NCBI RefSeq assembly: GCF_900636825.1
Contig: NZ_LR134318.1
Coordinates: forward strand, 434,001 to 498,000
Length of the DNA: 64,000 bases
Reading direction: 5' to 3'
Source of the DNA: Pseudomonas fluorescens
GTDB taxonomy: Bacteria > Pseudomonadota > Gammaproteobacteria > Pseudomonadales > Pseudomonadaceae
Below, in pieces: positions 5,316 to 21,413 of this stretch. The position numbers and the translations under genes are program-made. The notes below the pieces were generated by a model. It was not told the DNA's origin, made no database searches, and saw only the letters and a list, made by a program, of their open reading frames with translations. Numbering within the stretch: position 1 is the first letter of the stretch; each line of letters opens with the position of its first letter.

Positions 5316-6551
5316 TTAATTCGGTTGCGGCCAGCGGCGAAAAATCAACGAAGTGTTGACGCCACCAAAAGCGAAATTGTTGTTCATCACGTATTCATGG
5401 TGCATCTGGCGGAATTCACCGCGCAGGTAATCGAGCTTGCCGCAGTGCGGGTCGACTTCGTCGAGGTTGAAGGTGTGCACATACTGATCGCTGTTGAGCA
5501 TCTCGATGCTGAACCATGACTCCAGCGCACCGCAGGCGCCGAGGGTGTGACCGAGGAAACTCTTCTGCGAGCTGATCGGCATGTGCTCGCCGAACAGGCT
5601 GCTGGTGGCCAGCGTTTCGGCGATGTCGCCCTGTTCGGTCGCGGTGCCGTGGCCGTTTACGTAGCCGATGGCGTCCGGCGTCAGGCCGGCATCTTCCAGG
5701 GCCAGCTCCATTGCGCGGCGCATGGTCACTTGTTCGGGGCGAGTGGTGTGCTGACCATCGGCGTTGCTGCCGAAGCCGACGATTTCAGCGTGAATGTGCG
5801 CGCCACGGGCGAGGGCGTGTTCCAGTTCTTCAAGCACCAGCATGCCGCCACCTTCGCCGATCACCAAGCCATCGCGGCCCTTGTCGTAAGGGCGAGGGCT
5901 AGTCTGCGGTGCATCGTTTTTCAGGCTGGTGGCGTACAGCGCATCGAAAACCATGGCTTCGGTCGGGCACAGCTCTTCGGCGCCGCCGGCGAGCATCAGT
6001 GGCAGGCGGCCAAACTTGATCGCTTCGTAGGCATAGCCGATGCCCTGGCTGCCGCTGGTGCAGGCGCTGGACGTCGGGATCAGCCGACCGGTAAGGCCGA
6101 AGAAAATGCTGATGTTTGCGGCGGTGGTATGCGGCATCATCCGCACGTAGGAGTTGGCGTTGAGGCCCTCGGCCACCGAGTTGAGCAGCATATTGCCGAA
6201 TGCTTTGATCTCGTCGGTGCTGCCGGTGGAAGAGCCACAGGCGACGCCCATGCGCCCGTCCTTGATCGATTCGTCGCCGAGCAGGCCGGCGTCGGCGAGG
6301 GCTTTTTCCGCCGCGCCGACCGCCAGTCGCGAGACCCGGCCCATGCTGCGCAATTGCTTGCGCGTCCAGTGCGCCGGCACGAGAAAATCATCGATGGGTC
6401 CGGCCAGACGTGTATTGAGTTCAGTGAAGCGATCCCACTCGTCCATCTGGCGAATGCCGCTGCGGTTGGCCGCGAAGTTGCCGGCAATGGTCTGCCAGTC
6501 GCTGCCCAGCGAGGTAATACCGGCCATGCCGGTGACGACGACGCGCTTCAT
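5316..6551 (-). CDS. apeR: APE beta-ketoacyl-ACP synthase (FabF-like), ApeR type
   Basis: The product is a 411-residue condensing enzyme with a complete Cys-His-His triad: SSACTSGSQ, VNGHGTATEQGD and QKSFLGHTLGA. The start at 6551 is preferred because GGAGG lies 9 bases upstream and the ATG overlaps the apeQ stop as TGATG; a GTG six bases earlier would be too close to the ribosome site. In aryl polyene systems this KS acts as a homodimer beside the ApeO/ApeC pair and is thought to start or support chain extension. That role is taken from work on the Xenorhabdus cluster. Confidence 0.92.
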   Translation of the reverse strand: MKRVVVTGMAGITSLGSDWQTIAGNFAANRSGIRQMDEWDRFTELNTRLAGPIDDFLVPAHWTRKQLRSMGRVSRLAVGAAEKALADAGLLGDESIKDGRMGVACGSSTGSTDEIKAFGNMLLNSVAEGLNANSYVRMMPHTTAANISIFFGLTGRLIPTSSACTSGSQGIGYAYEAIKFGRLPLMLAGGAEELCPTEAMVFDALYATSLKNDAPQTSPRPYDKGRDGLVIGEGGGMLVLEELEHALARGAHIHAEIVGFGSNADGQHTTRPEQVTMRRAMELALEDAGLTPDAIGYVNGHGTATEQGDIAETLATSSLFGEHMPISSQKSFLGHTLGACGALESWFSIEMLNSDQYVHTFNLDEVDPHCGKLDYLRGEFRQMHHEYVMNNNFAFGGVNTSLIFRRWPQPN

Positions 6552-7279
6552 CAGCACAAGCCTCCGTTGACCGCCAGCACCTGGCGGGTGATGTACGAAG
6601 CTTCCGCCGACATCAGGAAATTCACCGCAGCCGCTACTTCTTCAGGGGTGCCCATGCGTTGTGCGGGAATCATTTTCATCAGCTCTTCCACCGGCACGTT
6701 TTCGTCGAGCATGGCCGTGTCGATCAGACCCGGGGCGACGCAGTTAACGGTGATTTTGCGCTTGCCCAGCTCGATCGCCAATGCCTTTGCCGCACCGATC
6801 ACGCCGGCCTTCGAAGCGCTGTAATTGACCTGGCCACGGTTGCCGATCAAACCCGAAACGGAAGTGATGCAGACGATGCGCCCGGCGGCACGACGACGGA
6901 TCATCGGCATCATCACCGGGTGCAAAACGTTGTAAAAACCGTCGAGGTTGGTCCGCAGCACCACGTCCCAATCGTCGTCGCTCAGCGCCGGAAACGCGCC
7001 GTCGCGGGTCAACCCGGCGTTGAGCACCACGCCGTAATAGGCGCCGTGGCTTTCGACGTCGGCTTCGAGAATGCGTTTGCAGGTTTCGCGATCGGCGACG
7101 TCGAATTGCAGGACGCGCACACGGCGGCCCAACGCTTCGATTTCAGCCTGCACCGCCTGCGCTTCGCTCAAGCCGCTGCGGCAATGCAGGACGATGTCAT
7201 GCCCGGCTTGCGCCAAACGCAAGGCAATGGCGCGGCCGATGCCACGGCTGGAGCCGGTGACCAGTACGGATTCAGTCAT
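6551..7279 (-). CDS. apeQ: APE 3-ketoacyl-ACP reductase (FabG-like SDR)
   Basis: The product has 242 residues. It is a short-chain dehydrogenase with the NADP(H) motif TGSSRGIG near the N terminus, the NAG motif (VLNAGLTRDG) and the catalytic Tyr-Lys in NYSASKAG. It reduces the 3-keto group of the growing ACP-bound polyene before dehydration. The gene overlaps apeP by 8 bases and meets apeR at TGATG, so translation of the three is probably coupled. Confidence 0.93.
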   Translation of the reverse strand: MTESVLVTGSSRGIGRAIALRLAQAGHDIVLHCRSGLSEAQAVQAEIEALGRRVRVLQFDVADRETCKRILEADVESHGAYYGVVLNAGLTRDGAFPALSDDDWDVVLRTNLDGFYNVLHPVMMPMIRRRAAGRIVCITSVSGLIGNRGQVNYSASKAGVIGAAKALAIELGKRKITVNCVAPGLIDTAMLDENVPVEELMKMIPAQRMGTPEEVAAAVNFLMSAEASYITRQVLAVNGGLC

Positions 7280-7736
7280 CGTTCGACTCCTTTGTCTGTT
7301 GCAGATATTGGTTGGCTTCGGGCGGACGGAATACGTTCAGCCGGGCGCTGGCGTGAATCCCGTCGCCATTGATGTGGCATTCGAATACACCCATGCCATT
7401 GTCGTCTTCCAGCGAGCGCAAACCGTGGATGGTCAACGCACTCCCCGCTGGAAAGGCTTCGACATTGCACTCGTATTTGCGCGTGCCGAGCAAAAAGCCC
7501 AGCTCTACCGGATTGCCTTTCTGCCGGGCATGGCAACCGGCGAAAGCGGCGACGCTTTGCGCCATCAGCTCGACGCCGACCCACGCCGGCAGGCTGCCGT
7601 CGGGCAGGTTGAACAGGCCGTCGGGCTTGACCGTGAGGCGGGTGAAAATCTGCTCATCGTCGAAGCGCTCGATCGCATCGATCAGAATCATGTCGCCGGC
7701 ATGCGGCAGCAGTTCGGCGAGCGGCCAGTGGCTCAT
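7272..7736 (-). CDS. apeP: APE 3-hydroxyacyl-ACP dehydratase (hotdog fold)
   Basis: The product has 154 residues and fits the FabA/FabZ-like hotdog dehydratases; LPHAGDMILID carries the conserved His near residue 12. It removes water to create the conjugated double bonds. In the Xenorhabdus system ApeP works as a heterodimer with ApeI, whose equivalent here is the C-terminal domain of the ligase fusion at 19192-20871. The gene overlaps its upstream neighbour apeO by 4 bases. Confidence 0.9.
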   Translation of the reverse strand: MSHWPLAELLPHAGDMILIDAIERFDDEQIFTRLTVKPDGLFNLPDGSLPAWVGVELMAQSVAAFAGCHARQKGNPVELGFLLGTRKYECNVEAFPAGSALTIHGLRSLEDDNGMGVFECHINGDGIHASARLNVFRPPEANQYLQQTKESNDD

Positions 7737-8929
7737 GGGGCGTCTCCGATAATCAGGCTGACGTTATTGCCGCCGAAGGCAAACGAGTTGCTCATCAGGT
7801 AGCGCGGTGCAATGGACGTCAGGCGCTCGCTCGCGGTCACCCATTTGAGCGGTGGCAAGGCCGGATCGGCCTGGCCGTCCCAGATATGCGGCGGCAATGC
7901 GTGCTGAGGATTCTCTGCACTCAGGCTCAGCCAGCAGAACGCCGCTTCCAGCGCGCCAGCGGCACCGAGGGTATGGCCAGTCAGTGGTTTGGTCGACGAG
8001 CAGGCCACGCCATCCGGAAACAGTGTCGCGACCGCGAGACTTTCCATGGCGTCGTTGTGCTGGGTGGCGGTGCCGTGCAGGTTCAGATAGTTGATCTGCG
8101 GCGCTCGCAGGTGTGCGCGGCTCAAGGCTTTCTGCATCGCTTGCAGGGCGCCGCGTCCAGTCGGCTCCGGTGCCGAAATATGATGCGCGTCGGAACTCGC
8201 GCCCGCACCAAGCAGGGCAATCGCCGGCCCGTCATCCTGCTGTCGGCTCATCATGAACAATACCGCCGCCTCGCCGATGTTGATGCCGTTGCGATTGACC
8301 GAGAACGGATTGCAGCGCTCATCGGACACCGCATCGAGCGCGGAAAAACCATTGAGCGTCAGTTTGCACAAACTGTCGACGCCGCCGCACAGCACCGCGT
8401 CGCACAGGCCCAGATCAAGCAGGCGTTGGGCGCTCATCAGCGCCCGTGCGCTGGAAGTGCACGCGGTGGAAATGACATAGGCCGGGCCGCTCAGTTGCAG
8501 CCATTCAGCAAGAAAATTTGCCGGGGCACCGAGCTCCTGTTGGCGGTAATCGTATTCAGTCGGGAATTGCTGCTCGCGAATGTAATGCGCCAGGCCCCGG
8601 CTGGCCTCGTCGATGCCCGAGGTGCTGGTGCCCAGGACCACGCCGATGCGCTCACGACCGTAGGCCTGGATCGCGCGGTCGATATCATCACGGATCTGCA
8701 ACGCGGCTTCCAGCAGCAGTTGATTGTTGCGACTGCTTTGGTCGACCAGTTCCGCAGGAATCGCTGCCAGCTCGCCGTGCACGGCAGCCACCGGCAATTC
8801 ACGCTCGGCCACCCAGCCGGCTGTGCGGCGCATGCCCGAACAGTCGCCGGCGAACAGATTGCGCGCGACTTCAGACTTGTCGCGACCCAAAGCGCAGATC
8901 ACGCCGAGGGCATTGAGGTAAGCGGTCAT
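7733..8929 (-). CDS. apeO: APE beta-ketoacyl-ACP synthase, catalytic KS of the KS/CLF pair
   Basis: The 398-residue thiolase-fold KS has all active-site residues: Cys in STACTSSA, His in LNLHGTATQHND and His in KPLTGHTLGA. In characterised APE pathways it pairs with the shorter chain-length factor ApeC (here at 22715-23440) to set polyene length. It overlaps the downstream apeP and the upstream lipoprotein gene by 4 bases each. Confidence 0.93.
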   Translation of the reverse strand: MTAYLNALGVICALGRDKSEVARNLFAGDCSGMRRTAGWVAERELPVAAVHGELAAIPAELVDQSSRNNQLLLEAALQIRDDIDRAIQAYGRERIGVVLGTSTSGIDEASRGLAHYIREQQFPTEYDYRQQELGAPANFLAEWLQLSGPAYVISTACTSSARALMSAQRLLDLGLCDAVLCGGVDSLCKLTLNGFSALDAVSDERCNPFSVNRNGINIGEAAVLFMMSRQQDDGPAIALLGAGASSDAHHISAPEPTGRGALQAMQKALSRAHLRAPQINYLNLHGTATQHNDAMESLAVATLFPDGVACSSTKPLTGHTLGAAGALEAAFCWLSLSAENPQHALPPHIWDGQADPALPPLKWVTASERLTSIAPRYLMSNSFAFGGNNVSLIIGDAP

Positions 8930-9417
8930 GGCGTCGATTCACCGAGCTGGGATACGCGATATTGCGGGCCTTGGGGCAGGTTCAATTCGAAGCTCAACGG
9001 TTGTGCGTAGCGGACGTCCCAGCGCGCTGGCAGGGCGCGTTGCCCGGCCTGCTGCTGCGCGGTGGGGTAATTGCGCAGCAGCTCGCCCGACGGAGTCAGG
9101 GCGAACAGCAGCGCGGCGAACAGCTCCCGGGCTTCCGGGTTCGGCGGCAGCAGGCCATCGGCCTGCCAATGCCCATCGATCAATTGCTGACGCGCCTGGG
9201 GAATGCCCAGCGGGTCCATCATCGACCAGCGAATGCCCGGGCCTTCGCGCTGGATCACCAACAGCCAGTCCTGGCGTTGATCGGCTTGCAGGCGCTCAAT
9301 GTGCAATTGCAGCGGCAGGGGCAGCGTCGGGTTGCCGGCGGGCAATGGCGACTGGCTGGCGCAGGCACTCAACAGAAGCACCAAGCTCACCACAAAAAGT
9401 CGCCAAACCGCGGACAT
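8926..9417 (-). CDS. apeN: DUF3261-type lipoprotein of the APE export system (ApeN)
   Basis: The product has 163 residues. MSAVWRLFVVSLVLLLSACAS is a clear lipoprotein signal with a LSAC lipobox, so the mature protein is a lipid-anchored envelope protein. The family occurs in APE clusters with the LolA-like and RND proteins and is taken to help carry the pigment lipid to the outer membrane. The ATG at 9417 directly abuts a REP element and has no visible Shine-Dalgarno sequence. An alternative ATG at 9540, coupled to the methyltransferase stop, would add 41 residues translated from the REP and bury the signal peptide. Confidence 0.82.
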   Translation of the reverse strand: MSAVWRLFVVSLVLLLSACASQSPLPAGNPTLPLPLQLHIERLQADQRQDWLLVIQREGPGIRWSMMDPLGIPQARQQLIDGHWQADGLLPPNPEARELFAALLFALTPSGELLRNYPTAQQQAGQRALPARWDVRYAQPLSFELNLPQGPQYRVSQLGESTP

Positions 9418-9507
9418 TGTGGGAGCTGGCTTGCCAGCGATAGCGTCGGCAGCTCCAGTATTGAGCCTAACTGGTCCACCGCTATCGCTGGCAAGCCAGC
9501 TCCCACA
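9418..9507. repeat. REP-type inverted repeat pair (family A) inside the APE operon
   Basis: Two perfect 27-base arms (9418-9444 and 9481-9507) occupy most of the only gap of more than 25 bases inside the operon. The left arm touches the apeN start codon, so the element occupies the place where its ribosome-binding site should be. Confidence 0.93.
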
Positions 9508-9539
9508 GGACTCTATGTGTGCAGATGGAAAGTGGCGCA

Positions 9540-10265
9540 TCAGATAGCACCTGCAAGCGGCTTGCGCGCGACGACATTCACCAGGGTCTCTTCGCGCTCA
9601 CCGAATGGCTTCGGCTTGCTCAAGCCCAATCGCTCCAGCAGACCAAAATCCTTTGACCGACTCCACCACAGGTACGGGTAGGAAACGTTCTGCTCGGCAA
9701 ACTCGAAACCCTGGCCACGAATCATTTCCAGATACCCGGCGGCGCTCTTCTGCACGTGCATCGGATGGCGGAACAGCCAGCGAATCACCCAGGTATCAAT
9801 GTAAGCCTCGGTGGACTCGGCGAACAGCAGATAACCACCCGGTTTCAGCACCCGATAAAACTCGGCGAGTGCTTTTTCCTGCTCGACCAGGTGATGGAAA
9901 GTCTGATGGCAGAACAGCAGGTCGACACTGGCGTCCGCAACCTGGAGCGTTGCGCAATCGCTGCCGATCAGTTCGACGTCGAGGCCCAACCGCGCGGCCT
10001 CTTCGGCGCTGAGTTGCAGGCTGTGCGGGTCGGCATCGACGCCGATCAAGCGGTGGGGGGCGAACGTCTGGCGCAGATGTGCGAACGACTTGCCCTGACC
10101 GCAACCGGCGTCCAGCAGCACCGGGTTTTGCGGCAGCGCATGAGTAAACAATCCGCGTAGATCATTGATCGCCACTCGCAACACATGGTGCTGCCAAGTG
10201 TGGCTGCGCAGGAACCAGAAACCGAAGCGGGTTTCCTCGACGTAACTGTCGCTCAGGTAGTTCAT
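9540..10265 (-). CDS. SAM-dependent methyltransferase of the APE cluster
   Basis: The 241-residue class I methyltransferase has motif I VLLDAGCGQGKS, an acidic residue after beta2 (LIGVDADP) and the LKPGGYLLFAE motif. Similar enzymes in aryl polyene and flexirubin clusters are thought to methylate the aryl head or the phenol oxygen; the position methylated cannot be read from sequence. It overlaps the halogenase-like gene by 4 bases. Confidence 0.85.
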   Translation of the reverse strand: MNYLSDSYVEETRFGFWFLRSHTWQHHVLRVAINDLRGLFTHALPQNPVLLDAGCGQGKSFAHLRQTFAPHRLIGVDADPHSLQLSAEEAARLGLDVELIGSDCATLQVADASVDLLFCHQTFHHLVEQEKALAEFYRVLKPGGYLLFAESTEAYIDTWVIRWLFRHPMHVQKSAAGYLEMIRGQGFEFAEQNVSYPYLWWSRSKDFGLLERLGLSKPKPFGEREETLVNVVARKPLAGAI

Positions 10266-11509
10266 GAGGCATCCTGTGCGCAGAGTTCAGAGATCATCTT
10301 CAGCCGTCGACGCGCTTCGCTGACAAACGGGTTGCGCTCATTCCAGGCGTAGCCGGCGAGGATCGAGCAGATCATCCGACGAATTTCCGCCTGACCATCC
10401 TCATAGAAAATCACGTCCTGAAAAGTGCCGGCGTACCAGCCCTCGACGTAGCAGCGGAAGGTGTCGACGCCACGCTTGAGCGGCTCGGCAAATTCGCTTT
10501 GCCAATCGACCGTTTCACCCTGCAACTGACGGTGCAAAACGGCTGCGGCCATGCTTGCCGAACGCATGGCAATGGTCACGCCGGAGGAGAACACCGGGTC
10601 GAGAAATTCTGCGGCGTTGCCAAGCAAGGCAAAACCCGGCCCGTGCAGGCTTTTCACGTTGGCCGCGTAACCTCCGAGGGTGCGCGCCGGGGTGTCCCAC
10701 ACGGCATTGTTCAAGACCCCGGCGAGGCTCGGCGTTTCGGCGATGAAGCTGCGCAGGCACGCATCAAGGTCGGCGTCGCGACCGGCGAAATGCGCGGCGG
10801 CGGCCACCACGCCGACTGAGCAGCGTCCATTGCTGAACGGGATCGTCCAGAACCACACATCACGGTGCTCTGGATGGGTGGTGACGAGGATTTTTTCGCG
10901 GTCGAAGGCCGGGTTGTCGATGTGATCCTCGACATGGGTGAACACCGCCTGACGCACCGGAAAATTCGACGGCGCCTCAAGGTCGAGCAAGCGCGACAGT
11001 ACGCGGCCATAACCGCTGGCATCAAGGACGAAATCCGCTTCGACGCGGTACTCGCTGTCGTCCTCGCGACGCACATTCAGCTGTGGTTTTGCCCGGTCGA
11101 AATCGACGCTGACGATGGCGTCGCCATAACGAATTTCGACACCTTGCAGTGCCGCTTGATCGGCCAGCAGTTTGTCGAAATCGGCGCGCTGCACCTGGAA
11201 CGTGGTTGGCTTGCCGTCGGTAAAGGTGTCGCTGAAATCGAAAGCGCTGTAGCGCTCGCCCCAGGCGAAAGCCGCGCCAGTCTTGCGCTGGAATCCGGCG
11301 GCGTTGACGGCATCAAGCATGCCGGCTTCTTCAACGAAATCCAGGCAATGACTGAGCAGACTCTCACCGATGGAAAAGCGGGGGAAATGCTGGCGTTCGA
11401 GCACCAGCACATCGTGGCCCTTGCGCTTGAGCAGGGCAGCAGCGATAGCGCCGGACGGGCCGGCACCGATGATCACGACCTGACGGGATTCCATTTCAAC
11501 GATTGGCAC
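10262..11509 (-). CDS. Flavin-dependent halogenase-like FAD oxidoreductase
   Basis: The product has 415 residues. The N-terminal FAD motif VVIIGAGPSGAIAA is followed by FPRFSIGESLL, typical of this superfamily. Residues 219-224 read WFWTIP and fit the WxWxIP signature of flavin-dependent halogenases, and Lys76 in FQRKTGAAFAWG sits where halogenases keep their catalytic lysine. A halide-adding role on the aryl head or polyene would parallel the halogenated xanthomonadins. It could instead be a related monooxygenase or reductase that lost halogenation. The GTG at 11509 has GGAG upstream; an ATG at 11494 is also possible. Confidence 0.72.
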   Translation of the reverse strand: MPIVEMESRQVVIIGAGPSGAIAAALLKRKGHDVLVLERQHFPRFSIGESLLSHCLDFVEEAGMLDAVNAAGFQRKTGAAFAWGERYSAFDFSDTFTDGKPTTFQVQRADFDKLLADQAALQGVEIRYGDAIVSVDFDRAKPQLNVRREDDSEYRVEADFVLDASGYGRVLSRLLDLEAPSNFPVRQAVFTHVEDHIDNPAFDREKILVTTHPEHRDVWFWTIPFSNGRCSVGVVAAAAHFAGRDADLDACLRSFIAETPSLAGVLNNAVWDTPARTLGGYAANVKSLHGPGFALLGNAAEFLDPVFSSGVTIAMRSASMAAAVLHRQLQGETVDWQSEFAEPLKRGVDTFRCYVEGWYAGTFQDVIFYEDGQAEIRRMICSILAGYAWNERNPFVSEARRRLKMISELCAQDAS

Positions 11510-12659
11510 GCGAGCTCCGGGGCAAAGGGCTATTCAAGTTCAAGGACGCGCTGTGCAGGCCGATCAGGGCGGGCAACAGCGTCGCAGTCAGGCCCATCAA
11601 CATCAGCGCGAAATACAGCGCCGGAGTGATGAGTTGTTGTTGCAGCAGCAGATTGAGAAAGACGATTTCGCTCAGGCCGCGAATGTTCAGCAGCACGCTT
11701 TCGCGCCAGCGGCTGGCGCCTTCGAACGAGGCGCCGGCCCAGCCGAGGCCAAGCCAATTGCCGAGCAGTTTACTGGCAATCGGCAACAGCAACAGCGCGG
11801 CCCATTGCCCCCAACCGAGGCTGGCGAGGGCGCTGTGCACATCGATCTGCACGATGCCGAAGGTCAGAATCAGCGGAATCGCGATCCACGTCTGCAATCG
11901 GCTCATCCAGCGCGCCGGCAGTGGCAGCACCAGCGGCACCTTGAGCGCAGCCATGCACAGCAGATAGCCGATGCCGAAAATCAGCGCGTTGAGTTTGTAA
12001 TGCTCGGCCATCACCAACAGTGCGAAGAAACCCAGGCTGTAGGTCAGTGGTCGGCGTACACCGAGCAGGCGCAGCAACAGCGGCGCACAGGCCAATCCCA
12101 GCGGCAGCAGCAAACCGCTCAGGTGCAGACTGCCTTGACCGAGGCCGAACAGCGTCCAGCAGGTCAGATCGATGAGGATTGCGGTTTGCACCAGACGCCG
12201 GGTGGCGGCGGGCGGATAATCGATGTGCCGCAGGTACAGGTACAGCACGGGAATCGCGGTGATCGCGAACACCAGACCGATGGCCAGCCAACTCAGCCAG
12301 GGTTGCGCCGGCAGCAGCCAATACGCGGCCGCCAAGCCACAGGTAAAGGGCACGGCGAAACTCGGGATGGCGATTTTCACGCTTTGGCGATCGAGCTTCA
12401 GATCGATGACATCGCTGAGAATATGCCCCAGCAGCAGGGCGAAACTCAGGCTGTAGAGATTTTTCAGCCAGGCGGGCGCAATCAGTGCAGCGCCGCTGAG
12501 TTGCCAGCCGGGTTCGATCCAGAAATAAATCAGCAGCGGCAGACCGAAACTCGCCAGCAATAACTGGCTGACAATCGGAATCAATCCAACGCAGCGACCG
12601 ACGCGGGTGGCCATGGCGAACAGCGCCAAAGCCAACAGCCAGAAGACTGCGACCATCAT
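11496..12659 (-). CDS. CPA2-type cation/proton antiporter-like membrane protein in the APE cluster
   Basis: The 387-residue protein is very hydrophobic, with roughly 12 membrane spans. The segments VFAITAIPVLYLYLRHI, TAILIDLTCWTLFGL and NIRGLSEIVFLNLLL align with the ion-binding helices and the NPRGLTELV-like segment of CPA2 antiporters. The usual Asp-Asp pair is Asp-Leu here, so normal transport is uncertain. The ATG at 12659 overlaps the apeM stop as ATGA; the frame is open further upstream but that lies inside apeM. The role in pigment production is unknown; coupling export to the proton or ion gradient is one guess. Confidence 0.68.
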   Translation of the reverse strand: MMVAVFWLLALALFAMATRVGRCVGLIPIVSQLLLASFGLPLLIYFWIEPGWQLSGAALIAPAWLKNLYSLSFALLLGHILSDVIDLKLDRQSVKIAIPSFAVPFTCGLAAAYWLLPAQPWLSWLAIGLVFAITAIPVLYLYLRHIDYPPAATRRLVQTAILIDLTCWTLFGLGQGSLHLSGLLLPLGLACAPLLLRLLGVRRPLTYSLGFFALLVMAEHYKLNALIFGIGYLLCMAALKVPLVLPLPARWMSRLQTWIAIPLILTFGIVQIDVHSALASLGWGQWAALLLLPIASKLLGNWLGLGWAGASFEGASRWRESVLLNIRGLSEIVFLNLLLQQQLITPALYFALMLMGLTATLLPALIGLHSASLNLNSPLPRSSRANR

Positions 12660-14995
12660 GCGTTGGGCTCCGCAACGCTGGCGCTGTGGACGTGACGCCC
12701 GGCCCATGGCGCGAGGATGAAACTGAACGCCAGGCCGAGGCTCACCGACAGACCGAAGTTGCTCACCGCCGGTGTACTGGAAACCGCGAGCAAGCCGAAC
12801 GACAGCCACGTTGTCAGCGCGGCGAGCAACGTGCCGAGCAGGCTCACCGCCGCACCTCCGACCTGCTCACGCATGAGGATCGCGTAGTCGACGCTGATCG
12901 CAGTCACCAGCAGCAGGCCGAACAGGCTGAACAGGGTCAGCGGCTGACCGAGCCAGCCGAGGCTGGCCAAGCTGCACAGCGCAGCCAGCAGCGGCAGGGC
13001 AACGATGCGCAAGGCGCCACCGAAGCCGAACGGCAGGATCAATATCAAGACGATCAAGACGCAGGAGGCGAGCTTCAATTCGGCGGCGCTGACCTGCGTA
13101 GCGGCAAACACTTCATTCAGCTCGCCGAGACGATCCACCAGCCGCACCCCCGGCAAATCCAGCGCCTGGATCCGTAACAGGGCGGGGTTGTTCAAGCCTT
13201 GCAGGCTGGTAATGGCCGCCACACCCTCTGCGCTCGGCCCCAGCCACAGCGTGCGATACGGCTCGCCAAGCGGCCCGGCCAGTGCGGCGTCGATGTCTTC
13301 GGCGGGCAACGTCTGCAGCTGCTGCAATTCGCTTTGCAACGCCGCCAACGGCACGCCGAGATCGAGCAACGGCTGCCACAATGCCGGCAGTTTGTTCAGT
13401 GCTTCGCGCACTTGCTGTTGCTGGCTCGGCGGGCTGACCAGTTGATCGAGGGCCAGATAGCCTTGCAGTTTGTCGAGGTTGACCAGTTGCTCAAGGCGCT
13501 CGCTCAGCGCGCCTTGGCGCTCCAGCAACTCCTGCTGGTTGGCGCCGCGCACCAGGAAAAACTGGCTGGTGGGCTGATACCCGGTGATCCGTGCGATGGT
13601 CTGCGCTTCATCGGTCAGATGTTGCGGGGCGCCGACCCATTGGCGGATGTCATTCTTGCTTTGCAGCTGCATCAGTCCGCCAATGCAGAAGGCGATCAGC
13701 AGCGCCAGCAGCACCGGGGTGTGCACGCGTTGGAGCAGTGCTTCGCGCACGCTGATCAAGCGCTCGGCAAGTTTCAGCGGCCATTGCGTCGGACGTAATT
13801 CAACGTTATTGAGCAGCGCCGGCAACAGGCACACCGCCGAAAGATAAGCGCCAAGCAAACCGGCGGCCGAGAACACGGCAATTTGCGTCAGCGCCGGGAA
13901 CGGCGTCCAGGCCAGCGCCAGATAGCCGATGGCGCTGGTGATCAGGCTCAGGGTCAGCCCGGGCAACGTCAGTCGCAGCGCCGGCCAACTGCGCCATGGC
14001 CTCAGGCTCCAGCTCTTCGACAGATAGTGCAGCGGATAATCCACCGCGACGCCGATCAGGCTGGAGCCGAGCACCAGTGTCATCACATGCATGTGGCCGA
14101 ACAGCGCCACGCATGCCACTGCGCCGAACAGCATGCCCACCAGCACCGGCACGAAGGCCAGCAACACACGCCAGCGCCGGAACGCCAATAGCAGCAGCAA
14201 CAAAATGCCAACGGTGGCGCCGCCGCCGACCCAGGTCATCTCGCGGGTCGCTTGTTGTTGGCCGTTGGCGGCGTACAGCAAGCCACTGGCGGCGAGCAGT
14301 TGTACGTCGGATTTCGCCGCCTGCTCGCGACTGTGCTGCAGCAGATCGGCGACTTTCAGCGGCAGATTCATATCGAACGCATCGCCGGTGGTGCGCGCAC
14401 GCAGCATCACCCAGCTTTTGCCATCAGCGTCGGCGACCAGCGCGCCGCTGCCGATGTCCAGCTGCACCGCGCGGTGTTTCGGCTGGCTGTTCTGGATACG
14501 CCCGGTCAGGCCGAGCCAGTCATCCTGACTCGGCACCAGGCTGAAACCGGTGAAAGGATCGAACAGCGCTTGCACCCGCTGCTGAATGAACACGTCGGGG
14601 TGTTCGCGGAGCAATTGCCGGTCGTCCGCCGAGAGCATCGCCAAGCGCCCTTGCAGCAATTGCGTGCGCAGCGCCGGCAGATCCGCTTGCAGGTTCCACT
14701 GCACCTTTTCGAACAGGCCGCTGGCCTGCCATTGCTCACCGAGTTGCTGCGCCATGGCGACTGCCTGCTGGCGATCGACGTGACCGACCAGCACAAGCAT
14801 TTCGCGATTGAGCGGCTCCTGCATGCGCTGTTCCGCGCGCAGCTCGAGGGCGTCGGGATTGGTCCCGGGCACCAGCTCCATCAGGTTGGCCGACAGCGGC
14901 GAACCGTCGCGCCACTGCCAACCGCCCAGCGCAGCGACGGCCAGCAGCAGGATCAGAAACAGCCAGGGCAGCCTGCGTTCACTCGGCAAAATCAT
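12656..14995 (-). CDS. apeM: RND/MMPL-family exporter of the APE cluster
   Basis: The 779-residue polytopic inner-membrane protein has the RND/MMPL layout: one N-terminal helix, a large periplasmic domain, a five-helix block (from about WVGGGATVGILLLLLLAF), a second periplasmic domain and a second helix block. It is the predicted engine that moves the polyene lipid out of the inner membrane, together with LolA-like ApeL and lipoprotein ApeN. It overlaps apeL by 17 bases. Confidence 0.88.
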   Translation of the reverse strand: MILPSERRLPWLFLILLLAVAALGGWQWRDGSPLSANLMELVPGTNPDALELRAEQRMQEPLNREMLVLVGHVDRQQAVAMAQQLGEQWQASGLFEKVQWNLQADLPALRTQLLQGRLAMLSADDRQLLREHPDVFIQQRVQALFDPFTGFSLVPSQDDWLGLTGRIQNSQPKHRAVQLDIGSGALVADADGKSWVMLRARTTGDAFDMNLPLKVADLLQHSREQAAKSDVQLLAASGLLYAANGQQQATREMTWVGGGATVGILLLLLLAFRRWRVLLAFVPVLVGMLFGAVACVALFGHMHVMTLVLGSSLIGVAVDYPLHYLSKSWSLRPWRSWPALRLTLPGLTLSLITSAIGYLALAWTPFPALTQIAVFSAAGLLGAYLSAVCLLPALLNNVELRPTQWPLKLAERLISVREALLQRVHTPVLLALLIAFCIGGLMQLQSKNDIRQWVGAPQHLTDEAQTIARITGYQPTSQFFLVRGANQQELLERQGALSERLEQLVNLDKLQGYLALDQLVSPPSQQQQVREALNKLPALWQPLLDLGVPLAALQSELQQLQTLPAEDIDAALAGPLGEPYRTLWLGPSAEGVAAITSLQGLNNPALLRIQALDLPGVRLVDRLGELNEVFAATQVSAAELKLASCVLIVLILILPFGFGGALRIVALPLLAALCSLASLGWLGQPLTLFSLFGLLLVTAISVDYAILMREQVGGAAVSLLGTLLAALTTWLSFGLLAVSSTPAVSNFGLSVSLGLAFSFILAPWAGRHVHSASVAEPNA

Positions 14996-15581
14996 GTTGC
15001 TCCGCGTCGCTCAGTGGTTGCCCTGCCGTCCTGTCCTGCATGCGCAGTACCGTGCTGTCGCCCTGGGTTTCCAGCAACTCGATGGTCTGCACCAAGGCGC
15101 CGCCGTCAATATTGATCTGGTTGAAGACTTGCTTGAGCAGCATCGAACGCGGGGTCAACGTCAGTTTCCACTGCTGCGCATCGCCACTCAGGGCCAGATC
15201 GAAATCGCGCTGCAAGCCGCTGCTGTCGCCTTGCAGCACGGCGAGGAACAAGCGATTTTGCTCGGCCCCGGCGCTCTTGTTTGGCAGGACTTGCCAACCA
15301 TTGGCGTCACGGCGCGCGATGCCTTTGGCGGTGATGCGATAGTCCTGTTGCAGCGGCGTTTTCAACATCCACAACAGGCCGTGATTTTTCGCCAGGACAA
15401 AGCGGCCCTTGCTGATCAGCGGCTGCGGCAGGGCGCGCAGGTGTTTTTCCTGAGTGAACTGGCCGTGAATCACTTCTGGTTTCGCCAGTTGTTCACTGAG
15501 TTGTTGCAGGTCGAAAGCGTTGGCCCATGACGACACGGCCAGCAGTACCAGTGCGCCAAGGCTTTTGAAAAACACATTCAT
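14979..15581 (-). CDS. apeL: LolA-like outer-membrane lipoprotein carrier family protein (ApeL)
   Basis: The product has 200 residues with an N-terminal signal peptide (MNVFFKSLGALVLLAVSSWANA), so it is periplasmic. The rest fits the LolA/LolB-like fold: a run beginning with FDLQQLSEQLAKPE, then GQFTQEKHLRAL and a FVLAKNHGLLWML strand. By family it would shuttle a hydrophobic cargo, here presumably the aryl polyene lipid, across the periplasm. It overlaps apeK by 4 bases and apeM by 17. Confidence 0.87.
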   Translation of the reverse strand: MNVFFKSLGALVLLAVSSWANAFDLQQLSEQLAKPEVIHGQFTQEKHLRALPQPLISKGRFVLAKNHGLLWMLKTPLQQDYRITAKGIARRDANGWQVLPNKSAGAEQNRLFLAVLQGDSSGLQRDFDLALSGDAQQWKLTLTPRSMLLKQVFNQINIDGGALVQTIELLETQGDSTVLRMQDRTAGQPLSDAEQHDFAE

Positions 15582-16003
15582 CGCAGCATCCTTTCCACGG
15601 CATCGGTGAACACTTTTGGTGACGCCAGTTGCATCTCGCGGCTGCTGACTTCAACGGCGACCTGCACCGAGCTGGCGCGGGTCAGGCGTTCGTCGGTTTG
15701 CAGGTCGGTGATCAGATAGTTGATCTTCAGACGGTTTTCCCACTCGACCAGACTGGCGCGCACATTCAGCCGTTGGCCGAACACCGCGCCGCGTACATAA
15801 CGCAGTTGCAAGTCGATGATCGGCCAGGCGTAACCTGACTCGACCATGTGCGTGTAGTTGTGGCCGATCTTGTCGAGCAGCGCGCACCGTGCCACTTCGA
15901 GGTATTTGACGTAATGGCCGTGCCAGACCACGTGCATGGTGTCGACGTCGAAAAACGGCACGAGGATTTCCGTATCGGCGTGAAGCACTCCGGCGCTACG
16001 CAT
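15578..16003 (-). CDS. apeK: Acyl-CoA/ACP thioesterase, 4-hydroxybenzoyl-CoA thioesterase family (ApeK)
   Basis: This 141-residue hotdog thioesterase has the family motif VPFFDVDTMHVVWHGHYVKY, in which the Asp after F-F is the catalytic acid. It releases acyl groups from ACP; in aryl polyene pathways it is considered to free stalled or finished chains. It overlaps the ammonia-lyase gene by 8 bases. Confidence 0.9.
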   Translation of the reverse strand: MRSAGVLHADTEILVPFFDVDTMHVVWHGHYVKYLEVARCALLDKIGHNYTHMVESGYAWPIIDLQLRYVRGAVFGQRLNVRASLVEWENRLKINYLITDLQTDERLTRASSVQVAVEVSSREMQLASPKVFTDAVERMLR

Positions 16004-17540
16004 GCAACCTCCAGTGCTGTGCGGCGATGCGTTGCAGGCACAAACGCAGCTCGCCTTCCAGCGCTCGGTCTTCGATGACCGGCGGGAAGTCTTTGCCGAG
16101 TTCTTCGTGCATCGCGGCCAGCGCCGGCGGCAGCGGCCGGGCGTCTTCGGCCTGCGCGCGCAGCCACACGCCTTGGTTGGCCGCGAGCAAGGTGGCGGCG
16201 GCGACCTGTTCGGTCAGCTCCAGCACACGGATCGCATCGCGGGCGGCGATGGTGCCCATGCTCACCTTGTCCTGGTTGTGGCACTCGGTGGAGCGCGAGA
16301 ACACGCTGGCGGGCATGGTGTTTTTCAGCGCTTCGGCGGTCCAGGCGCTGGTGCCGATCTGCACAGCCTTGAAGCCGTGATTGATCATCGCCCGATCCGC
16401 CGGGGCGCCGGACAGGTTGCTCGGCAAACCGTGGTTGTAGCGCTCATCGACCAGCAAGGCGAGTTGCCGATCAAGCAGGTCGGCGATGTTGGCGACAAGG
16501 TTTTTCAGGCTGTCCATGGCGAACGCAATGTGCCCGCCGTAGAAGTGCCCGCCATGCAAAACGCGCTCGGCTTCGGCGTCGATGATCGGGTTGTCGTTGG
16601 CACTGTTCAGTTCGGTTTCGATGAAGCCGCGCAGCCAGTTCAGGCTGTCGGCCAGCACGCCGAGCACATGCGGGGCGCAGCGCAGGGAATAGCGATCCTG
16701 CAGACGATGCAGCGGCGCGGTGGGCGCGTCGATCGCCAGATCCTCGCGCAGCCACGCGGCCACCTGCATTTGTCCCGGATGCGGTTTGGCGGCGAACAAG
16801 CGCTCGTCGAAATGTTCCGGATTGCCTTGCAGCGCCACCACGTTGAGGGCGGTGATGCGCGTCGCCAGGTGCAGCAGGTAATCGGCGCGGGCGAAGGCTA
16901 GGCAGGCGAGGCCGGTCATCACCGCCGTGCCGTTCATCAGCGCCAACGCTTCTTTGGGGCGCAGCACCAGTGGCGTCCAGCCCAGTTCGCGATGCACATC
17001 GGCGGCCTGGCGGCGTTCGCCACGGAACATCACTTCACGCTCGCCGGACAGGGTCGCAGCGACGTAAGACAGCGGTGTCAGATCGCCGCTGGCACCGACC
17101 GAGCCCTCTTCGGGAATCAGCGGCAGGATGTCGTATTCGAGAAACGCGTGCAGACGTTCGAGCAGTTCCACGCGAACCCCGGAAACGCCGTGGCACAGCG
17201 ACTGCAAACGCGCCGCCAGCACCGCCCGAGTGGCCTGCGCGTCAAGCAGTTTGCCCAGGCCGCAACCGTGGAATGTATAGAGATGACGCGGCAACGCTTC
17301 GACGTGATGCAGCGGCACCGCCACGACGCAGGAATCGCCGTAACCGGTGGTGACGCCGTAGATCACGCCTTCCTTGTCCAGCAACGAATCGAGAAACCGC
17401 GCGCCCTTGGCGATACGCTCGCGGTAGTCGGCGTCATCCTGCAATCGCACGAGTGCCTGACGGTTGGCCAGGGCCAGCACGTCTTCGATGCGCAAAGGGC
17501 GTTCGCCGAAGGTTACCGGCTCATGAGTTGGCGTCGTCAT
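15996..17540 (-). CDS. Aromatic amino acid ammonia-lyase (HAL/PAL/TAL family)
   Basis: The 514-residue MIO enzyme eliminates ammonia from an aromatic amino acid to give a cinnamate-type acid, the aryl starter. Ala150-Ser151-Gly152 in GSVGASGDLTPLSY form the MIO cofactor and Tyr61 in YGVTTGYG is the catalytic tyrosine. The substrate-selectivity pair is Phe90-His91 (LYTFHGCGLG), compared with His-Leu in tyrosine, Phe-Leu in phenylalanine and Ser-His in histidine lyases. Histidine degradation is unlikely because no hut gene is near. The gene is embedded in the operon, overlapping both neighbours. Confidence 0.88.
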   Translation of the reverse strand: MTTPTHEPVTFGERPLRIEDVLALANRQALVRLQDDADYRERIAKGARFLDSLLDKEGVIYGVTTGYGDSCVVAVPLHHVEALPRHLYTFHGCGLGKLLDAQATRAVLAARLQSLCHGVSGVRVELLERLHAFLEYDILPLIPEEGSVGASGDLTPLSYVAATLSGEREVMFRGERRQAADVHRELGWTPLVLRPKEALALMNGTAVMTGLACLAFARADYLLHLATRITALNVVALQGNPEHFDERLFAAKPHPGQMQVAAWLREDLAIDAPTAPLHRLQDRYSLRCAPHVLGVLADSLNWLRGFIETELNSANDNPIIDAEAERVLHGGHFYGGHIAFAMDSLKNLVANIADLLDRQLALLVDERYNHGLPSNLSGAPADRAMINHGFKAVQIGTSAWTAEALKNTMPASVFSRSTECHNQDKVSMGTIAARDAIRVLELTEQVAAATLLAANQGVWLRAQAEDARPLPPALAAMHEELGKDFPPVIEDRALEGELRLCLQRIAAQHWRLHA

Positions 17541-18468
17541 CGGTCTTCCAGAAAGGGTAAAAGTTGAACCATTGCTGTGGCGCTTCGAGGCAATAGTGAC
17601 TCAGGCGCTGCGCGTAGCGGGTGGCCCACTGATGAATGACCTGCTCGCGCTCGCGGCGTGTCCAGGTCACGGCGTCGGCGAACGGTTCGAGGTTCAGGCG
17701 ATAGTGGCCGTCGGGTTGTTTCAGGCACATCAGCAGATTGACCGGGCATTTCAGCAGCCCGGCGAGGAGCCATGGCCCTTGCGGGAACGCTGCCGGGTGG
17801 CCGAGAAAATCCACTGTCACACTGCGCCCACCGTGCAGCGGCACGCGGTCGCCGGCAATGGCCAGCCACTCGCCGCGCTCCAGTCGTTCGTGCAGTTGCA
17901 GCATGATCACCGGGTCGAGCTCGCTGACCTGAATCAGACGCAGATTGGTGGCACCGGCCTCGCCCAGCAAGCGGTTGAATTGCTCGGCGTGTTTGGTGTG
18001 CACCAGCACGTTCATGGTGACCTTTTCGCCGATTTCCGCCAGTGCTCGGCACACTTCAAGATTGCCCAGATGCGCGCCGACCAGCAATTGCCCGCGACTG
18101 CCACGCAACTGCTGGCGCAACAGCGCCGGGTCGATGATTTCGATCTGCTCGATGCTCAGTTTGCCGTTCCACACATCGAGCTTGTCCAGCAGCGAATCGG
18201 CAAACGTCATGAACTGGCTGAAAACCCGCCAGTGGCTCGGCCGCAAATCGTCACGTTGGCTCCACTCGGCCAGGCGCTGCTGGAATTGCCAGGCACTGCG
18301 CCGCGCGGTGCGGCCGAACAGAAAGAAATACAGGACGATGCCATACAGCAACGGGCTAAGCAGGCGTCTGCCCAAGACTTTGGCGGCGAGTGCGGTAAAT
18401 TTCATCAGCATGAAACTGCCGCGCTCTTCACGGTCGGCCCAATGCTTCTTGTCGATTTCGCTGCTCAT
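17521..18468 (-). CDS. LpxL-like lysophospholipid acyltransferase of the APE cluster
   Basis: The 315-residue protein is membrane-associated near the N terminus (LYGIVLYFFLFGRTARRSA). VGAHLGNLEVCRAL supplies the HxxxxE motif of lipid A-type acyltransferases, and LAIAGDRVPLHGG and FPQGPWLLAGL are further family blocks. The ATG at 18468 overlaps the glycosyltransferase stop as ATGA; the open frame upstream lies inside that gene. In other APE clusters this domain is fused to the glycosyltransferase as ApeJ; here the two are separate genes. It probably transfers the polyene chain to a lipid or sugar acceptor. Confidence 0.85.
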   Translation of the reverse strand: MSSEIDKKHWADREERGSFMLMKFTALAAKVLGRRLLSPLLYGIVLYFFLFGRTARRSAWQFQQRLAEWSQRDDLRPSHWRVFSQFMTFADSLLDKLDVWNGKLSIEQIEIIDPALLRQQLRGSRGQLLVGAHLGNLEVCRALAEIGEKVTMNVLVHTKHAEQFNRLLGEAGATNLRLIQVSELDPVIMLQLHERLERGEWLAIAGDRVPLHGGRSVTVDFLGHPAAFPQGPWLLAGLLKCPVNLLMCLKQPDGHYRLNLEPFADAVTWTRREREQVIHQWATRYAQRLSHYCLEAPQQWFNFYPFWKTDDDANS

Positions 18469-19199
18469 GTTCGCCACCGGCGCCAGAGAATGACGGGAAG
18501 ACGCAGCAGCATGCCGAAGAACAGCCGGGTGTGCATGCTCGAGATCAGCGCGTTGTCGTGGAACAGGCGGAAGTGCGACACGCCATCGAGCGGATAATGC
18601 ACGCTGGTCTGCAGCCAGCGCATCGGCTGATTGCGCCAGGCCAGACGCACGAGAATGTCCGAATCGAAATCCATGCGTTTGCCGATTTTCGCCGAGTCGA
18701 TGACTGCCAGCGTCGGGGCCAGCGGATAAACGCGGAAACCGCACATCGAATCGCGAATCTGCAACGACAGCGTGTTGATCCACACCATTACGTGGGTCAG
18801 GTACCGCGCGTACAAACGACCCTTGGGCACGCTGTCGTCGAACAGCGGATAACCGCAGATCATCGCCTGTGGATGTGCGCGTGATTGCTCGACGAAACGG
18901 GCGACGTCGTGCAAATCGTGCTGGCCATCGGCGTCGACCTGGAGCGCGTGGGTGAACCCCAACCGCGCAGCTTCCCGCAGACCGGTCATGACCGCGCCGC
19001 CTTTGCCCTGATTGACGGCCAGGCGCACCAGAAAAACGTTGTCACGCCCGGCGAGGGAGTCGAGCACCCGAGCGCAGGACGGCGCGCTGGCGTCATCCAC
19101 CAGAATGCACGGCAAGTTCTGGGCGAGCAGCGCATCGACTACGGTGCCGATAGCGGTTTCGTGGTTGTAGACCGGGATCACGGCGCAAGGGTTATGCAT
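18465..19199 (-). CDS. Family 2 glycosyltransferase of the APE cluster
   Basis: The product has 244 residues. Its GT-A fold begins with CAVIPVYNHETAIG, and the metal-binding DxD is in LQVDADGQH. The gene begins at an ATG overlapping the stop of the ligase gene and ends in a 4-base overlap with the acyltransferase. It corresponds to the N-terminal half of ApeJ-type proteins and would add a sugar to the carrier lipid. The acceptor and sugar are unknown. Confidence 0.87.
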   Translation of the reverse strand: MHNPCAVIPVYNHETAIGTVVDALLAQNLPCILVDDASAPSCARVLDSLAGRDNVFLVRLAVNQGKGGAVMTGLREAARLGFTHALQVDADGQHDLHDVARFVEQSRAHPQAMICGYPLFDDSVPKGRLYARYLTHVMVWINTLSLQIRDSMCGFRVYPLAPTLAVIDSAKIGKRMDFDSDILVRLAWRNQPMRWLQTSVHYPLDGVSHFRLFHDNALISSMHTRLFFGMLLRLPVILWRRWRT

Positions 19200-20871: not shown

Positions 20872-21413
20872 GTACGGCCTCTTACCCGTTGTCGTATCAG
20901 CCATTCAATGGCAAACATCAGGCCGATCAATCCGTAGGAGATCAGGCCGGTGTACAACATCCACCAATTCAGCGGCGCCCACAGGGTCAGGAGGGCGGCG
21001 CACAAACCGTTGCAAAAGAAAAACACGCTCCAGGCCACCGTGACCTTGCGCGTGTAGCGAATCGCGATATCAGGCAGTTCCGGCTCGCGCAGACGTGCCA
21101 AGCGCTCGACCATCGGCGGGCCGAATTTCAGGCTCAGGCTGAACAGCGCGAGCATGAAGGCGCTGATCAGCACCGGGTACCAGCGCAGCAAAAGCGGACT
21201 GTCGAACACTGCCAGCAGCAGGCAGAACACGATCGCCACAACGGCCATGGACAAACTGCCGGGTTTGCGCTCGCCGGTCAGTGCCCGCGCCAGCCATAAC
21301 CCGCCCAGCAGCAGCCCGAACTGCCACGGGGCGAAGTGCTCCATGCCGAAATACACCGCAAAGGGATACAGCAGACCGGCCAGCAGCAGGCCCAGGCCGA
21401 TCAGTCGGCTCAT
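20868..21413 (-). CDS. apeG: Small integral membrane protein of the APE cluster (COG4648-like, ApeG position)
   Basis: The 181-residue protein has about six hydrophobic segments, for example LIGLGLLLAGLLYPFAVYF and MAVVAIVFCLLLAVF. The conserved segment ELPDIAIRYTRKVTVAWSVFF is typical of the APE-linked membrane family, which databases often misname. The function is unknown; an accessory role in assembly of the membrane complex is likely from context. It overlaps the ACP gene upstream and the ligase gene downstream by 4 bases each. Confidence 0.78.
   Translation of the reverse strand: MSRLIGLGLLLAGLLYPFAVYFGMEHFAPWQFGLLLGGLWLARALTGERKPGSLSMAVVAIVFCLLLAVFDSPLLLRWYPVLISAFMLALFSLSLKFGPPMVERLARLREPELPDIAIRYTRKVTVAWSVFFFCNGLCAALLTLWAPLNWWMLYTGLISYGLIGLMFAIEWLIRQRVRGRT

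What the first reader, a model, noticed from the sequence alone, without database searches (positions are those of the whole stretch)
10262..11509. Halogenase-like enzyme inside an APE cluster
Trp219-Phe-Trp-Thr-Ile-Pro fits the WxWxIP halogenase motif and Lys76 sits where the catalytic lysine is expected. Xanthomonadins, related polyenes, are halogenated. A halogenated aryl polyene from Pseudomonas would be notable.
Basis: partly seen in the sequence, partly recalled or inferred. Interest (0 to 1): 0.66.

Follow-up and report, generated by a model that had tools for sequence, protein, structure and literature searches.

The report
Likely halogenase of Pseudomonas pigment cluster
A gene cluster for an aryl-polyene pigment in this Pseudomonas contains an enzyme with the complete active-site signature of enzymes that attach chlorine or bromine; it is common across the genus rather than exceptional, and no halogenated pigment has yet been shown for it.

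Summary
The gene lies on the minus strand (11509 to 10262, GTG start, 415 aa). WFWTIP is at 219-224, and Lys76 aligns with the lysine of CndH, CmlS, ChlB4, Mpy16 and FasV. It is the FAD-halogenase-type gene of an aryl-polyene (APE) operon. It is not rare: 111 of 149 Pseudomonas genomes carry it, as do 12 of 14 Aliivibrio and 47 of 398 Pseudomonadota. In 153 distinct family proteins Lys76, WxWxIP and FxDPxFSSG never vary, whereas four QhpG hydroxylases of related fold lack the lysine, the IP and the FSSG. The AlphaFold model (pLDDT 91) is closest to 3nix, then to the halogenases ChlB4, Mpy16 and PltA. Six Pseudomonas APE clusters lack the gene plus one neighbour but keep the core genes, so it looks like an optional tailoring enzyme. 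It forms a clade apart from arc-type APE halogenase-like proteins and has Asn298 where 16 compared halogenase-type proteins have Asp. Halogenation is the best reading (about 0.6) but unproven; I saw no report of a halogenated product from this clade. It is a widespread, apparently uncharacterised member of a known kind.

The parts
10262..11509 (-). FAD-dependent halogenase-type protein (P0001, 415 aa): GAGPSG 15-20, Lys76, DASG 163-166, WFWTIP 219-224, GN 297-298, FLDPVFSSG 302-310
9540..10265 (-). SAM-dependent methyltransferase, overlaps the halogenase-type gene by 4 bases; not found in one of the six FDH-less Pseudomonas clusters
11496..12656 (-). membrane protein, overlaps the start of the halogenase-type gene; no Pfam match and no convincing PDB match; optional; my label 'antip' (antiporter-like) is a guess by eye
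5316..6557 (-). ApeR-type ketosynthase
   Evidence: PRK09116, over cut-off; ape names after Table 1 of PMC8253772
6551..7279 (-). ApeQ-type ketoreductase
   Evidence: sequence; name by position, recalled family and co-occurrence in APE loci
7272..7736 (-). ApeP-type dehydratase
   Evidence: name by position and co-occurrence
7733..8929 (-). ApeO-type ketosynthase
   Evidence: PRK09185, over cut-off
8926..9447 (-). ApeN-like lipoprotein (no Pfam match; named by position and similarity to other APE loci; start uncertain)
12656..14995 (-). ApeM-type MMPL/RND exporter
14979..15581 (-). ApeL, LolA-like
15578..16003 (-). ApeK-type thioesterase
   Evidence: annotated orthologue in Acinetobacter
15996..17540 (-). 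aromatic amino acid ammonia-lyase (best NCBIfam: tyrosine ammonia-lyase BagA/FevW, below cut-off); likely supplies the hydroxycinnamate starter
17521..18483 (-). LpxL-like acyltransferase
18465..19259 (-). family 2 glycosyltransferase
19192..20904 (-). AMP-ligase fused to FabZ-like dehydratase (ApeH+ApeI)
   Evidence: below cut-offs
20868..21413 (-). ApeG-type membrane protein
21410..21664 (-). acyl carrier protein (ApeF-like)
21674..21979 (-). acyl carrier protein (ApeE-like)
21927..22907 (-). ApeD-type acyltransferase (1-acylglycerol-3-phosphate acyltransferase model, below cut-off)
22715..23440 (-). ApeC, chain-length factor (ketoacyl-synthase N-terminal domain)

Best explanation
P0001 is an FADH2-dependent halogenase that tailors the aryl head group of the APE made by this operon. 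Proposed steps: (1, inferred) a host flavin reductase supplies FADH2; (2, inferred) O2 gives the C4a-hydroperoxyflavin, which oxidises chloride or bromide bound near the SSG loop (308-310) to HOX, while WxWxIP holds the substrate away from the flavin; (3, inferred; supported by the invariant Lys76) HOX is passed along the tunnel to Lys76; (4, inferred) Lys76 directs electrophilic halogenation ortho to the phenol of a hydroxycinnamoyl-type starter or polyene, probably bound to one of the cluster's two acyl carrier proteins, because the closest characterised folds are ChlB4, Mpy16, PltA and Bmp2, some of which act on carrier-bound pyrroles (recalled). Shown here: predicted fold, motifs, cluster membership, and that clusters exist without the gene. 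Not shown: any halogenation.
For: Complete FDH motif set, aligned column by column with the solved halogenases CndH, CmlS, ChlB4, Mpy16 and FasV. Invariance of K76, WxWxIP and FxDPxFSSG in 153 of 153 distinct proteins whose pairwise identity goes down to 37% in 2000 sampled pairs, and in the 77 fetched without conserved-peptide patterns. AF2 model pLDDT 91.3 with Z 43.8 to ChlB4, 43.3 to Mpy16 and PltA, 42.4 to FasV, about 42 to Bmp2, against 35.5 for the best p-hydroxybenzoate hydroxylase. DASG instead of the DG motif of NAD(P)H-using hydroxylases (motif recalled). Control: QhpG hydroxylases (23 of 79 Pseudomonas genomes over the NCBIfam cut-off; 8 loci fetched, 4 aligned) keep only W-x-W, have no lysine in the aligned stretch, and lack the IP and the FSSG; two LodB-like proteins lack the lysine and the IP and have SSAG or SSQG for FSSG (these distant alignments are uncertain). 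Genomic association: APE clusters in 13 of 13 wide loci, in 11 more (L078-L085, L087-L089; the twelfth family locus there, L090, shows only two weak APE matches) and in L215; at least 4 core APE genes in 76 of 80 named loci. Tailoring behaviour: six Pseudomonas clusters keep the core genes without it. Precedents: halogenase genes in xanthomonadin clusters, conserved beside the KS-CLF pair (PMC3691225, passages and section 8); brominated aryl-polyene chains with a halogenase gene in bromoalterochromides of Pseudoalteromonas (PMC7551054, passages; its halogenase was not compared).
Against: I saw no halogenated APE from an organism shown to have this clade (searches; passages of 5 of the 11 papers listed were looked at, the other 6 not opened). 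Azoarcus ArcA is annotated halogenase, yet arcuflavin is proposed to be non-brominated (PMC3949708, sections 18 and 22). 12 of 14 Aliivibrio genomes have the gene, and the loci examined have it beside the APE cluster, while the V. fischeri APE is, as I recall, not halogenated; that paper is not held. All 153 family proteins have Asn298 where 16 non-family halogenase-type rows have the Asp of the GD motif. No flavin reductase was recognised in the operon (by annotation only). QhpG shows that the fold can hydroxylate (PMC7876137 passages). NCBIfam gives no equivalog over cut-off among the 25 families shown.
Confidence: 0.6

Rival explanations
1. The protein is a halogenase-fold flavin monooxygenase that hydroxylates (or epoxidises) the head group or the polyene, as QhpG hydroxylates a peptidyl tryptophan.
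For: QhpG has a halogenase-like fold closest to CmlS and part of the WxW motif but hydroxylates (PMC7876137 passages). The model still gives Z 35 to p-hydroxybenzoate hydroxylases. Arcuflavin, from a cluster with an annotated halogenase, is proposed to be non-brominated. Asn298 replaces the usual Asp.
Against: Four Pseudomonas QhpG proteins lack the lysine, the IP and the FSSG, while these never vary in this family. DASG instead of the DG motif.
Confidence: 0.22
2. A halogenase-derived protein whose present role is another redox step (for example dehydrogenation or reduction of a polyene intermediate), as the PDB title 'flavoprotein/dehydrogenase' of 3nix suggests.
For: The closest solved relative carries that title; a geranylgeranyl-reductase model matches below its cut-off (130 against 159 bits).
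Against: I know of no assay behind that title (recalled); '3nix' occurs in none of the 25 papers listed. Such a role does not explain the invariant K76, WxWxIP and SSG. The E. coli APE cluster lacks the gene and still makes a polyene (Table 1 of PMC8253772), and six Pseudomonas clusters lack it.
Confidence: 0.1
3. The enzyme is a halogenase but acts on something other than the APE, or is rarely active, so that Pseudomonas pigments stay unhalogenated.
For: No Pseudomonas APE with halogen was seen in the papers found (with the limits stated).
Against: In 71 of 76 loci where ApeM was found on the same strand, the gene lies within about 1.25 kb of ApeM (loci without ApeM on that strand, such as Vibrionaceae, are not in this count). 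In the Pseudomonas sample 111 genomes have it, all of them among the 118 with ApeC.
Confidence: 0.08

Closest known systems
3nix, Cytophaga hutchinsonii 'flavoprotein/dehydrogenase' (PDB)
   Same: 40-42% identity over nearly the whole length, Z 53.9, same clade (100/100), same K, WxWxIP, FSSG and GN motifs
   Different: Bacteroidota; function not known to me; its gene neighbourhood was not examined
ChlB4, Mpy16, PltA, Bmp2 (FADH2-dependent halogenases; carrier-bound pyrrole substrates recalled for Mpy16, PltA and Bmp2)
   Same: fold over 383-396 residues, Z 42-44; catalytic Lys, WxWxIP and FSSG checked column by column for ChlB4 and Mpy16
   Different: 22-27% identity; Asp (checked for ChlB4 and Mpy16) instead of Asn at position 298; other substrates and clusters
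CndH and FasV (8zop)
   Same: same lysine and WxWxIP columns; FSSG in CndH, LSTG in FasV; FasV is the best-scoring halogenase by sequence (162.8 bits)
   Different: 28-30% identity; outside the P0001 clade
ArcA-type 'halogenases' of xanthomonadin/arcuflavin-like APE clusters (Azoarcus arcA, PMC3949708; Xanthomonas and others, PMC3691225)
   Same: halogenase-type protein encoded in an APE cluster; same K, WxWxIP and FSSG in the arc-like loci L069, L070, L072-L075
QhpG flavoprotein monooxygenase
   Same: related fold (paper passages), part of WxW
   Different: lacks the Lys, IP and FSSG; P0001 scores 134 bits against a cut-off of 240

Membership tests
FADH2-dependent halogenases (FDH) | GxGxxG dinucleotide-binding motif | tested here: met
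   GAGPSG 15-20
FADH2-dependent halogenases (FDH) | catalytic lysine | tested here: met
   K76 aligns with the lysine of CndH, CmlS, ChlB4, Mpy16 and FasV; 153 of 153
FADH2-dependent halogenases (FDH) | WxWxIP motif | tested here: met
   WFWTIP 219-224; 153 of 153
FADH2-dependent halogenases (FDH) | FxxPxxSxG loop near the flavin (motif recalled) | tested here: met
   FLDPVFSSG 302-310; 153 of 153
FADH2-dependent halogenases (FDH) | halogenase fold | tested here: met
   AF2 pLDDT 91.3; Z 42-44 to ChlB4, Mpy16, PltA, FasV and Bmp2
FADH2-dependent halogenases (FDH) | Asp of the GD motif (conserved across the wider flavoprotein superfamily as I recall; not a halogenase-defining residue) | tested here: not met
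   Asn298 in 153 of 153 and in 3nix; Asp in 16 of 16 other halogenase-type rows. A clade marker; hence 'halogenase-type', not a canonical member
FADH2-dependent halogenases (FDH) | lysine lines the HOX tunnel in 3D | tested here: inconclusive
   only by alignment; model coordinates not available
FADH2-dependent halogenases (FDH) | partner flavin reductase | not tested
   none recognised in the operon; the genome was not searched for one
FADH2-dependent halogenases (FDH) | halogenating activity | not testable with these tools
   needs enzyme assay or mass spectrometry
APE biosynthetic gene cluster | KS/CLF, second KS, KR, DH, ACPs, AMP-ligase, exporter, LolA in one operon | tested here: met
   compared with Table 1 of PMC8253772
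ArcA-type APE halogenases | groups with the arc-like FDHs in the tree | tested here: not met
   P0001 clade 100/100; the 6 arc-like proteins fall in a group (100/96) with 4 proteins from loci without APE genes; a named Xanthomonas or Azoarcus sequence was not in the tree
QhpG monooxygenase | NCBIfam NF049967 score over cut-off | tested here: not met
   134.2 bits against 240
class A NAD(P)H-dependent hydroxylases | DG motif (recalled) | tested here: not met
   DASG 163-166 (Gly for Ala164 in 12 of 153 family proteins) as in the halogenases; pHBH itself was not in that alignment

The most novel reading that the evidence does not exclude
A distinct clade of halogenases, marked by Asn in place of the usual GD-motif Asp and acting on an ACP-bound phenolic polyene, halogenates aryl polyenes in about three quarters of Pseudomonas species and in many Vibrionaceae, Shewanella, Acinetobacter, Burkholderiales and some Myxococcota and Bacteroidota. 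Halogenated cell-envelope polyenes would then be one of the commonest classes of bacterial organohalogens, overlooked in part because the best-studied cluster, that of E. coli, lacks the gene.
Probability: 0.45. Interest if true: 0.7.

Novelty: new member of a known kind. Interest (0 to 1): 0.45.

Why it matters
[quoted passage not shown] If this lineage halogenates, halogenated envelope pigments would be common in Pseudomonas and marine bacteria rather than a speciality of a few genera. The clusters that keep the core genes but lack this one are natural controls, so the question can be settled by mass spectrometry.

Tried and rejected
Rejected: that the plus-strand reading matters (it contains stops). 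That the gene is a rare acquisition. That it is an orthologue of the arc-type APE halogenase-like proteins. That the neighbouring membrane gene is obligatorily linked to it: 65 of 76 loci show no match to that gene.

Tried without result: model coordinates for a tunnel measurement (none are laid out). Pfam and PDB matches for the membrane protein at 11496-12656 (a single PDB hit, E 0.81). Two unnamed Aliivibrio genomes with a lux operon (L195, L196) are fischeri-like by gene order as I recall it, which does not prove the species. A LodB control reached no hit over the NCBIfam cut-off (0 of 229 genomes), so L212 and L213 are only LodB-like. A try at the alterochromide halogenase of Pseudoalteromonas failed: the Pseudoalteromonas plasmid hit checked (L215) is an ordinary APE cluster, and the genus of G432, which I had hoped was Pseudoalteromonas, is unnamed; there only 2 of 59 genomes have the family gene and 3 a distant relative, so the gene is patchy in that genus. 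Cimermancic 2014 is not held; statements on the V. fischeri APE structure are recalled.

Limits: the tree uses 49 selected rows and known halogenases as partial chains copied from HMMER output; L077, FasV and CmlS are long branches. Invariance of F302, D304 and N298 in L091-L170 is partly built in, because those loci were fetched with the patterns FPRF[SV]IGES and GNA[GA]EFLD; one search repeats the count on 77 proteins from other loci. Family membership was set by a tblastn score over 300 bits to P0001, which dropped 11 distant proteins before the 153 were counted. In five of the six FDH-less clusters the small gene at 4852-5295 was not detected either.
Full report
What is there. The ORF at 10262-11509 is on the minus strand, GTG start at 11509, 415 aa. 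It belongs to an operon-like run of minus-strand genes, about 5316-23440, with the parts of an aryl-polyene (APE) cluster: ApeC chain-length factor, acyltransferase, two ACPs, ApeG, AMP-ligase/dehydratase, glycosyltransferase, acyltransferase, aromatic ammonia-lyase, thioesterase, LolA-like protein, MMPL exporter, a membrane protein, the halogenase-type gene, a methyltransferase, an ApeN-like lipoprotein, and ApeO, P, Q and R (names after Table 1 of PMC8253772, section 5 read; some by position only, see parts). The E. coli cluster in that table has neither the flavoprotein nor an ammonia-lyase.

The observation. Lys76 and WFWTIP 219-224 are as reported. Pfam Trp_halogenase matches at 5.5e-27. 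No NCBIfam equivalog among the 25 families shown reaches its cut-off; CmlS is the best at 174.5 bits against 900. The best PDB match by sequence is 3nix of Cytophaga hutchinsonii, titled flavoprotein/dehydrogenase (2.1e-107), followed by the halogenases 8zop (FasV), CmlS, CndH, Mpy16, Bmp2, ChlB4 and PltA (Mpy16, Bmp2 and FasV named).

Distribution. In 149 Pseudomonas genomes 111 have the gene at 70-100% identity and 118 have ApeC; the 111 are all among the 118. The difference is seven genomes: G025, G048, G059, G060, G070, G093 and G095. Six of these have APE clusters with the core genes but without the halogenase-type gene: five also lack the membrane gene beside it, and one keeps that gene but lacks the methyltransferase; in five the small gene at the far end was not detected. 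The seventh (L203) has only a stretch of ApeC. So the gene looks like a tailoring module, not a core enzyme. In 398 Pseudomonadota genomes 62 have a match; 47 are family members (45% identity or more, over 370 bits) and 15 have only distant relatives (under 182 bits). Named carriers include Vibrio, Photobacterium, Shewanella, Cupriavidus, Achromobacter, Stutzerimonas, the P. syringae group and Corallococcus, Acinetobacter baumannii, Pseudoalteromonas, where one record names it tryptophan 7-halogenase, and an Aureispira plasmid. 12 of 14 Aliivibrio genomes have it, but in another, unnamed genus only 2 of 59. Thirteen of 13 wide loci and 11 of 12 more family loci (L078-L085 and L087-L089; L090 shows only two weak APE matches) lie in APE clusters, as does L215. 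Of the 80 named loci, 76 show at least four core APE genes and 57 an ammonia-lyase; of the other four, L092, L117 and L141 lie on short contigs or near a contig end, and L106 shows none in full flanks.

Active-site evidence. In 153 distinct family proteins, pairwise identity down to 37% in 2000 sampled pairs, K76, W219, W221, I223, P224, F302, D304, P305, F307, S308, S309 and G310 are all invariant; K76 is the only invariant lysine of ten. The columns coincide with those of CndH, CmlS, ChlB4, Mpy16 and FasV (FasV has LSTG and CmlS FSQG for FSSG). As a control I fetched QhpG proteins (23 of 79 Pseudomonas genomes over the NCBIfam cut-off). QhpG has a halogenase-like fold but hydroxylates (PMC7876137, passages). 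The four aligned (of eight fetched) keep only W-x-W, have no lysine in the aligned stretch, and lack the IP and the FSSG; two LodB-like proteins lack the lysine and the IP and have SSAG or SSQG. These are distant alignments, so single columns are uncertain. The motif set thus separates these proteins from halogenases, and P0001 is on the halogenase side. One residue goes against the pattern: Asn298 replaces the Asp of the GD motif in all 153 and in 3nix, while 16 other halogenase-type rows have Asp.

Structure and tree. The AlphaFold model has pLDDT 91.3 and pTM 0.90. VIA-align gives Z 53.9 to 3nix, 43.8 ChlB4, 43.3 Mpy16, 43.3 PltA, 42.4 FasV, 42.3 and 41.8 Bmp2, 38.7 RadH, 38.3 CndH and 35.2 CmlS; the best p-hydroxybenzoate hydroxylase has 35.5. 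Foldseek puts the same halogenases at the head of its list after 3nix. Mpy16, PltA and Bmp2 act, as I recall, on carrier-protein-bound pyrroles, which fits a cluster with its own ACPs. In the tree the P0001 clade, with 3nix and Aureispira, is supported 100/100. The six halogenase-like proteins of arc-like APE clusters fall in a group (100/96) together with four proteins from loci without APE genes, on the same side of the tree as the known halogenases.

Literature. PMC3691225 (passages, section 8): halogenase genes occur in xanthomonadin clusters and are conserved beside the KS-CLF pair, absent in Lysobacter and Xylella; the Lysobacter pigment showed no bromine pattern. PMC3949708 (passages, sections 18 and 22): Azoarcus has arcA 'halogenase', yet arcuflavin is proposed to be non-brominated. 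PMC7551054 (passages): bromoalterochromides of Pseudoalteromonas carry an aryl-polyene chain and bromine, and a halogenase gene is in the cluster; that enzyme was not compared here. PMC8776678 (passages): a probable halogenase is tentatively annotated near APE ketosynthases of Acetobacteraceae. PMC11573776 (passages): a Pseudoalteromonas with an APE cluster and a gene called tryptophan halogenase, not linked to each other in the passages. PMC5851621 (passages): a P. donghuensis APE cluster is likened to that of V. fischeri. PMC10165715 (passages): the E. coli and V. fischeri APE are called flexirubin-like. PMC8358021 (passages), PMC9966250, PMC12664062 and PMC12775259: passages seen, nothing on this flavoprotein. 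Searches showed no characterised member of this clade; of the 11 papers listed I looked at passages of 5, and subscription papers are not covered, so this is weak evidence of absence.

Verdict. A halogenase-type enzyme, probably a real halogenase of the APE head group (about 0.6), in a widespread and apparently uncharacterised clade.

Noticed in passing
window 11496-12656 (minus strand): Membrane protein gene without Pfam match that overlaps the start of the halogenase-type gene; not found in five of the six Pseudomonas APE clusters that lack the halogenase-type gene, but also not in most clusters that have it.
   Followed up: partly
P0001 residue 298 (window 10616-10618): GN instead of GD at the flavin-contact motif in all family proteins compared, including solved structure 3nix; effect on flavin chemistry unknown.
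   Followed up: partly
L192, L193, L194 (Aliivibrio, unnamed) and L091-L103 (Vibrionaceae): In these Vibrionaceae loci the halogenase-type gene is transcribed divergently beside ApeC instead of lying inside the operon; in the three Aliivibrio loci about 2 kb separate them.
   Followed up: no
L141, L148, L153, L165 (Methylococcales): A second, 25-28% identical halogenase-type match stands near the 54-59% orthologue.
   Followed up: no
hits H6 and H7; G022: The orthologue is matched in three pieces in two Neisseria gonorrhoeae records and in two overlapping pieces in one Pseudomonas genome, so it may be broken there; the Neisseria records, and two of the Acinetobacter records (3.7 and 4.0 Mb), are of chromosome size although filed as plasmids.
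   Followed up: no
L090 (Aureispira anguillae plasmid): The Bacteroidota orthologue lies on a 122 kb plasmid with an AMP-binding protein, a trifunctional MMPL/acyltransferase/methyltransferase and a second FAD oxidoreductase.
   Followed up: no
   Followed up: no
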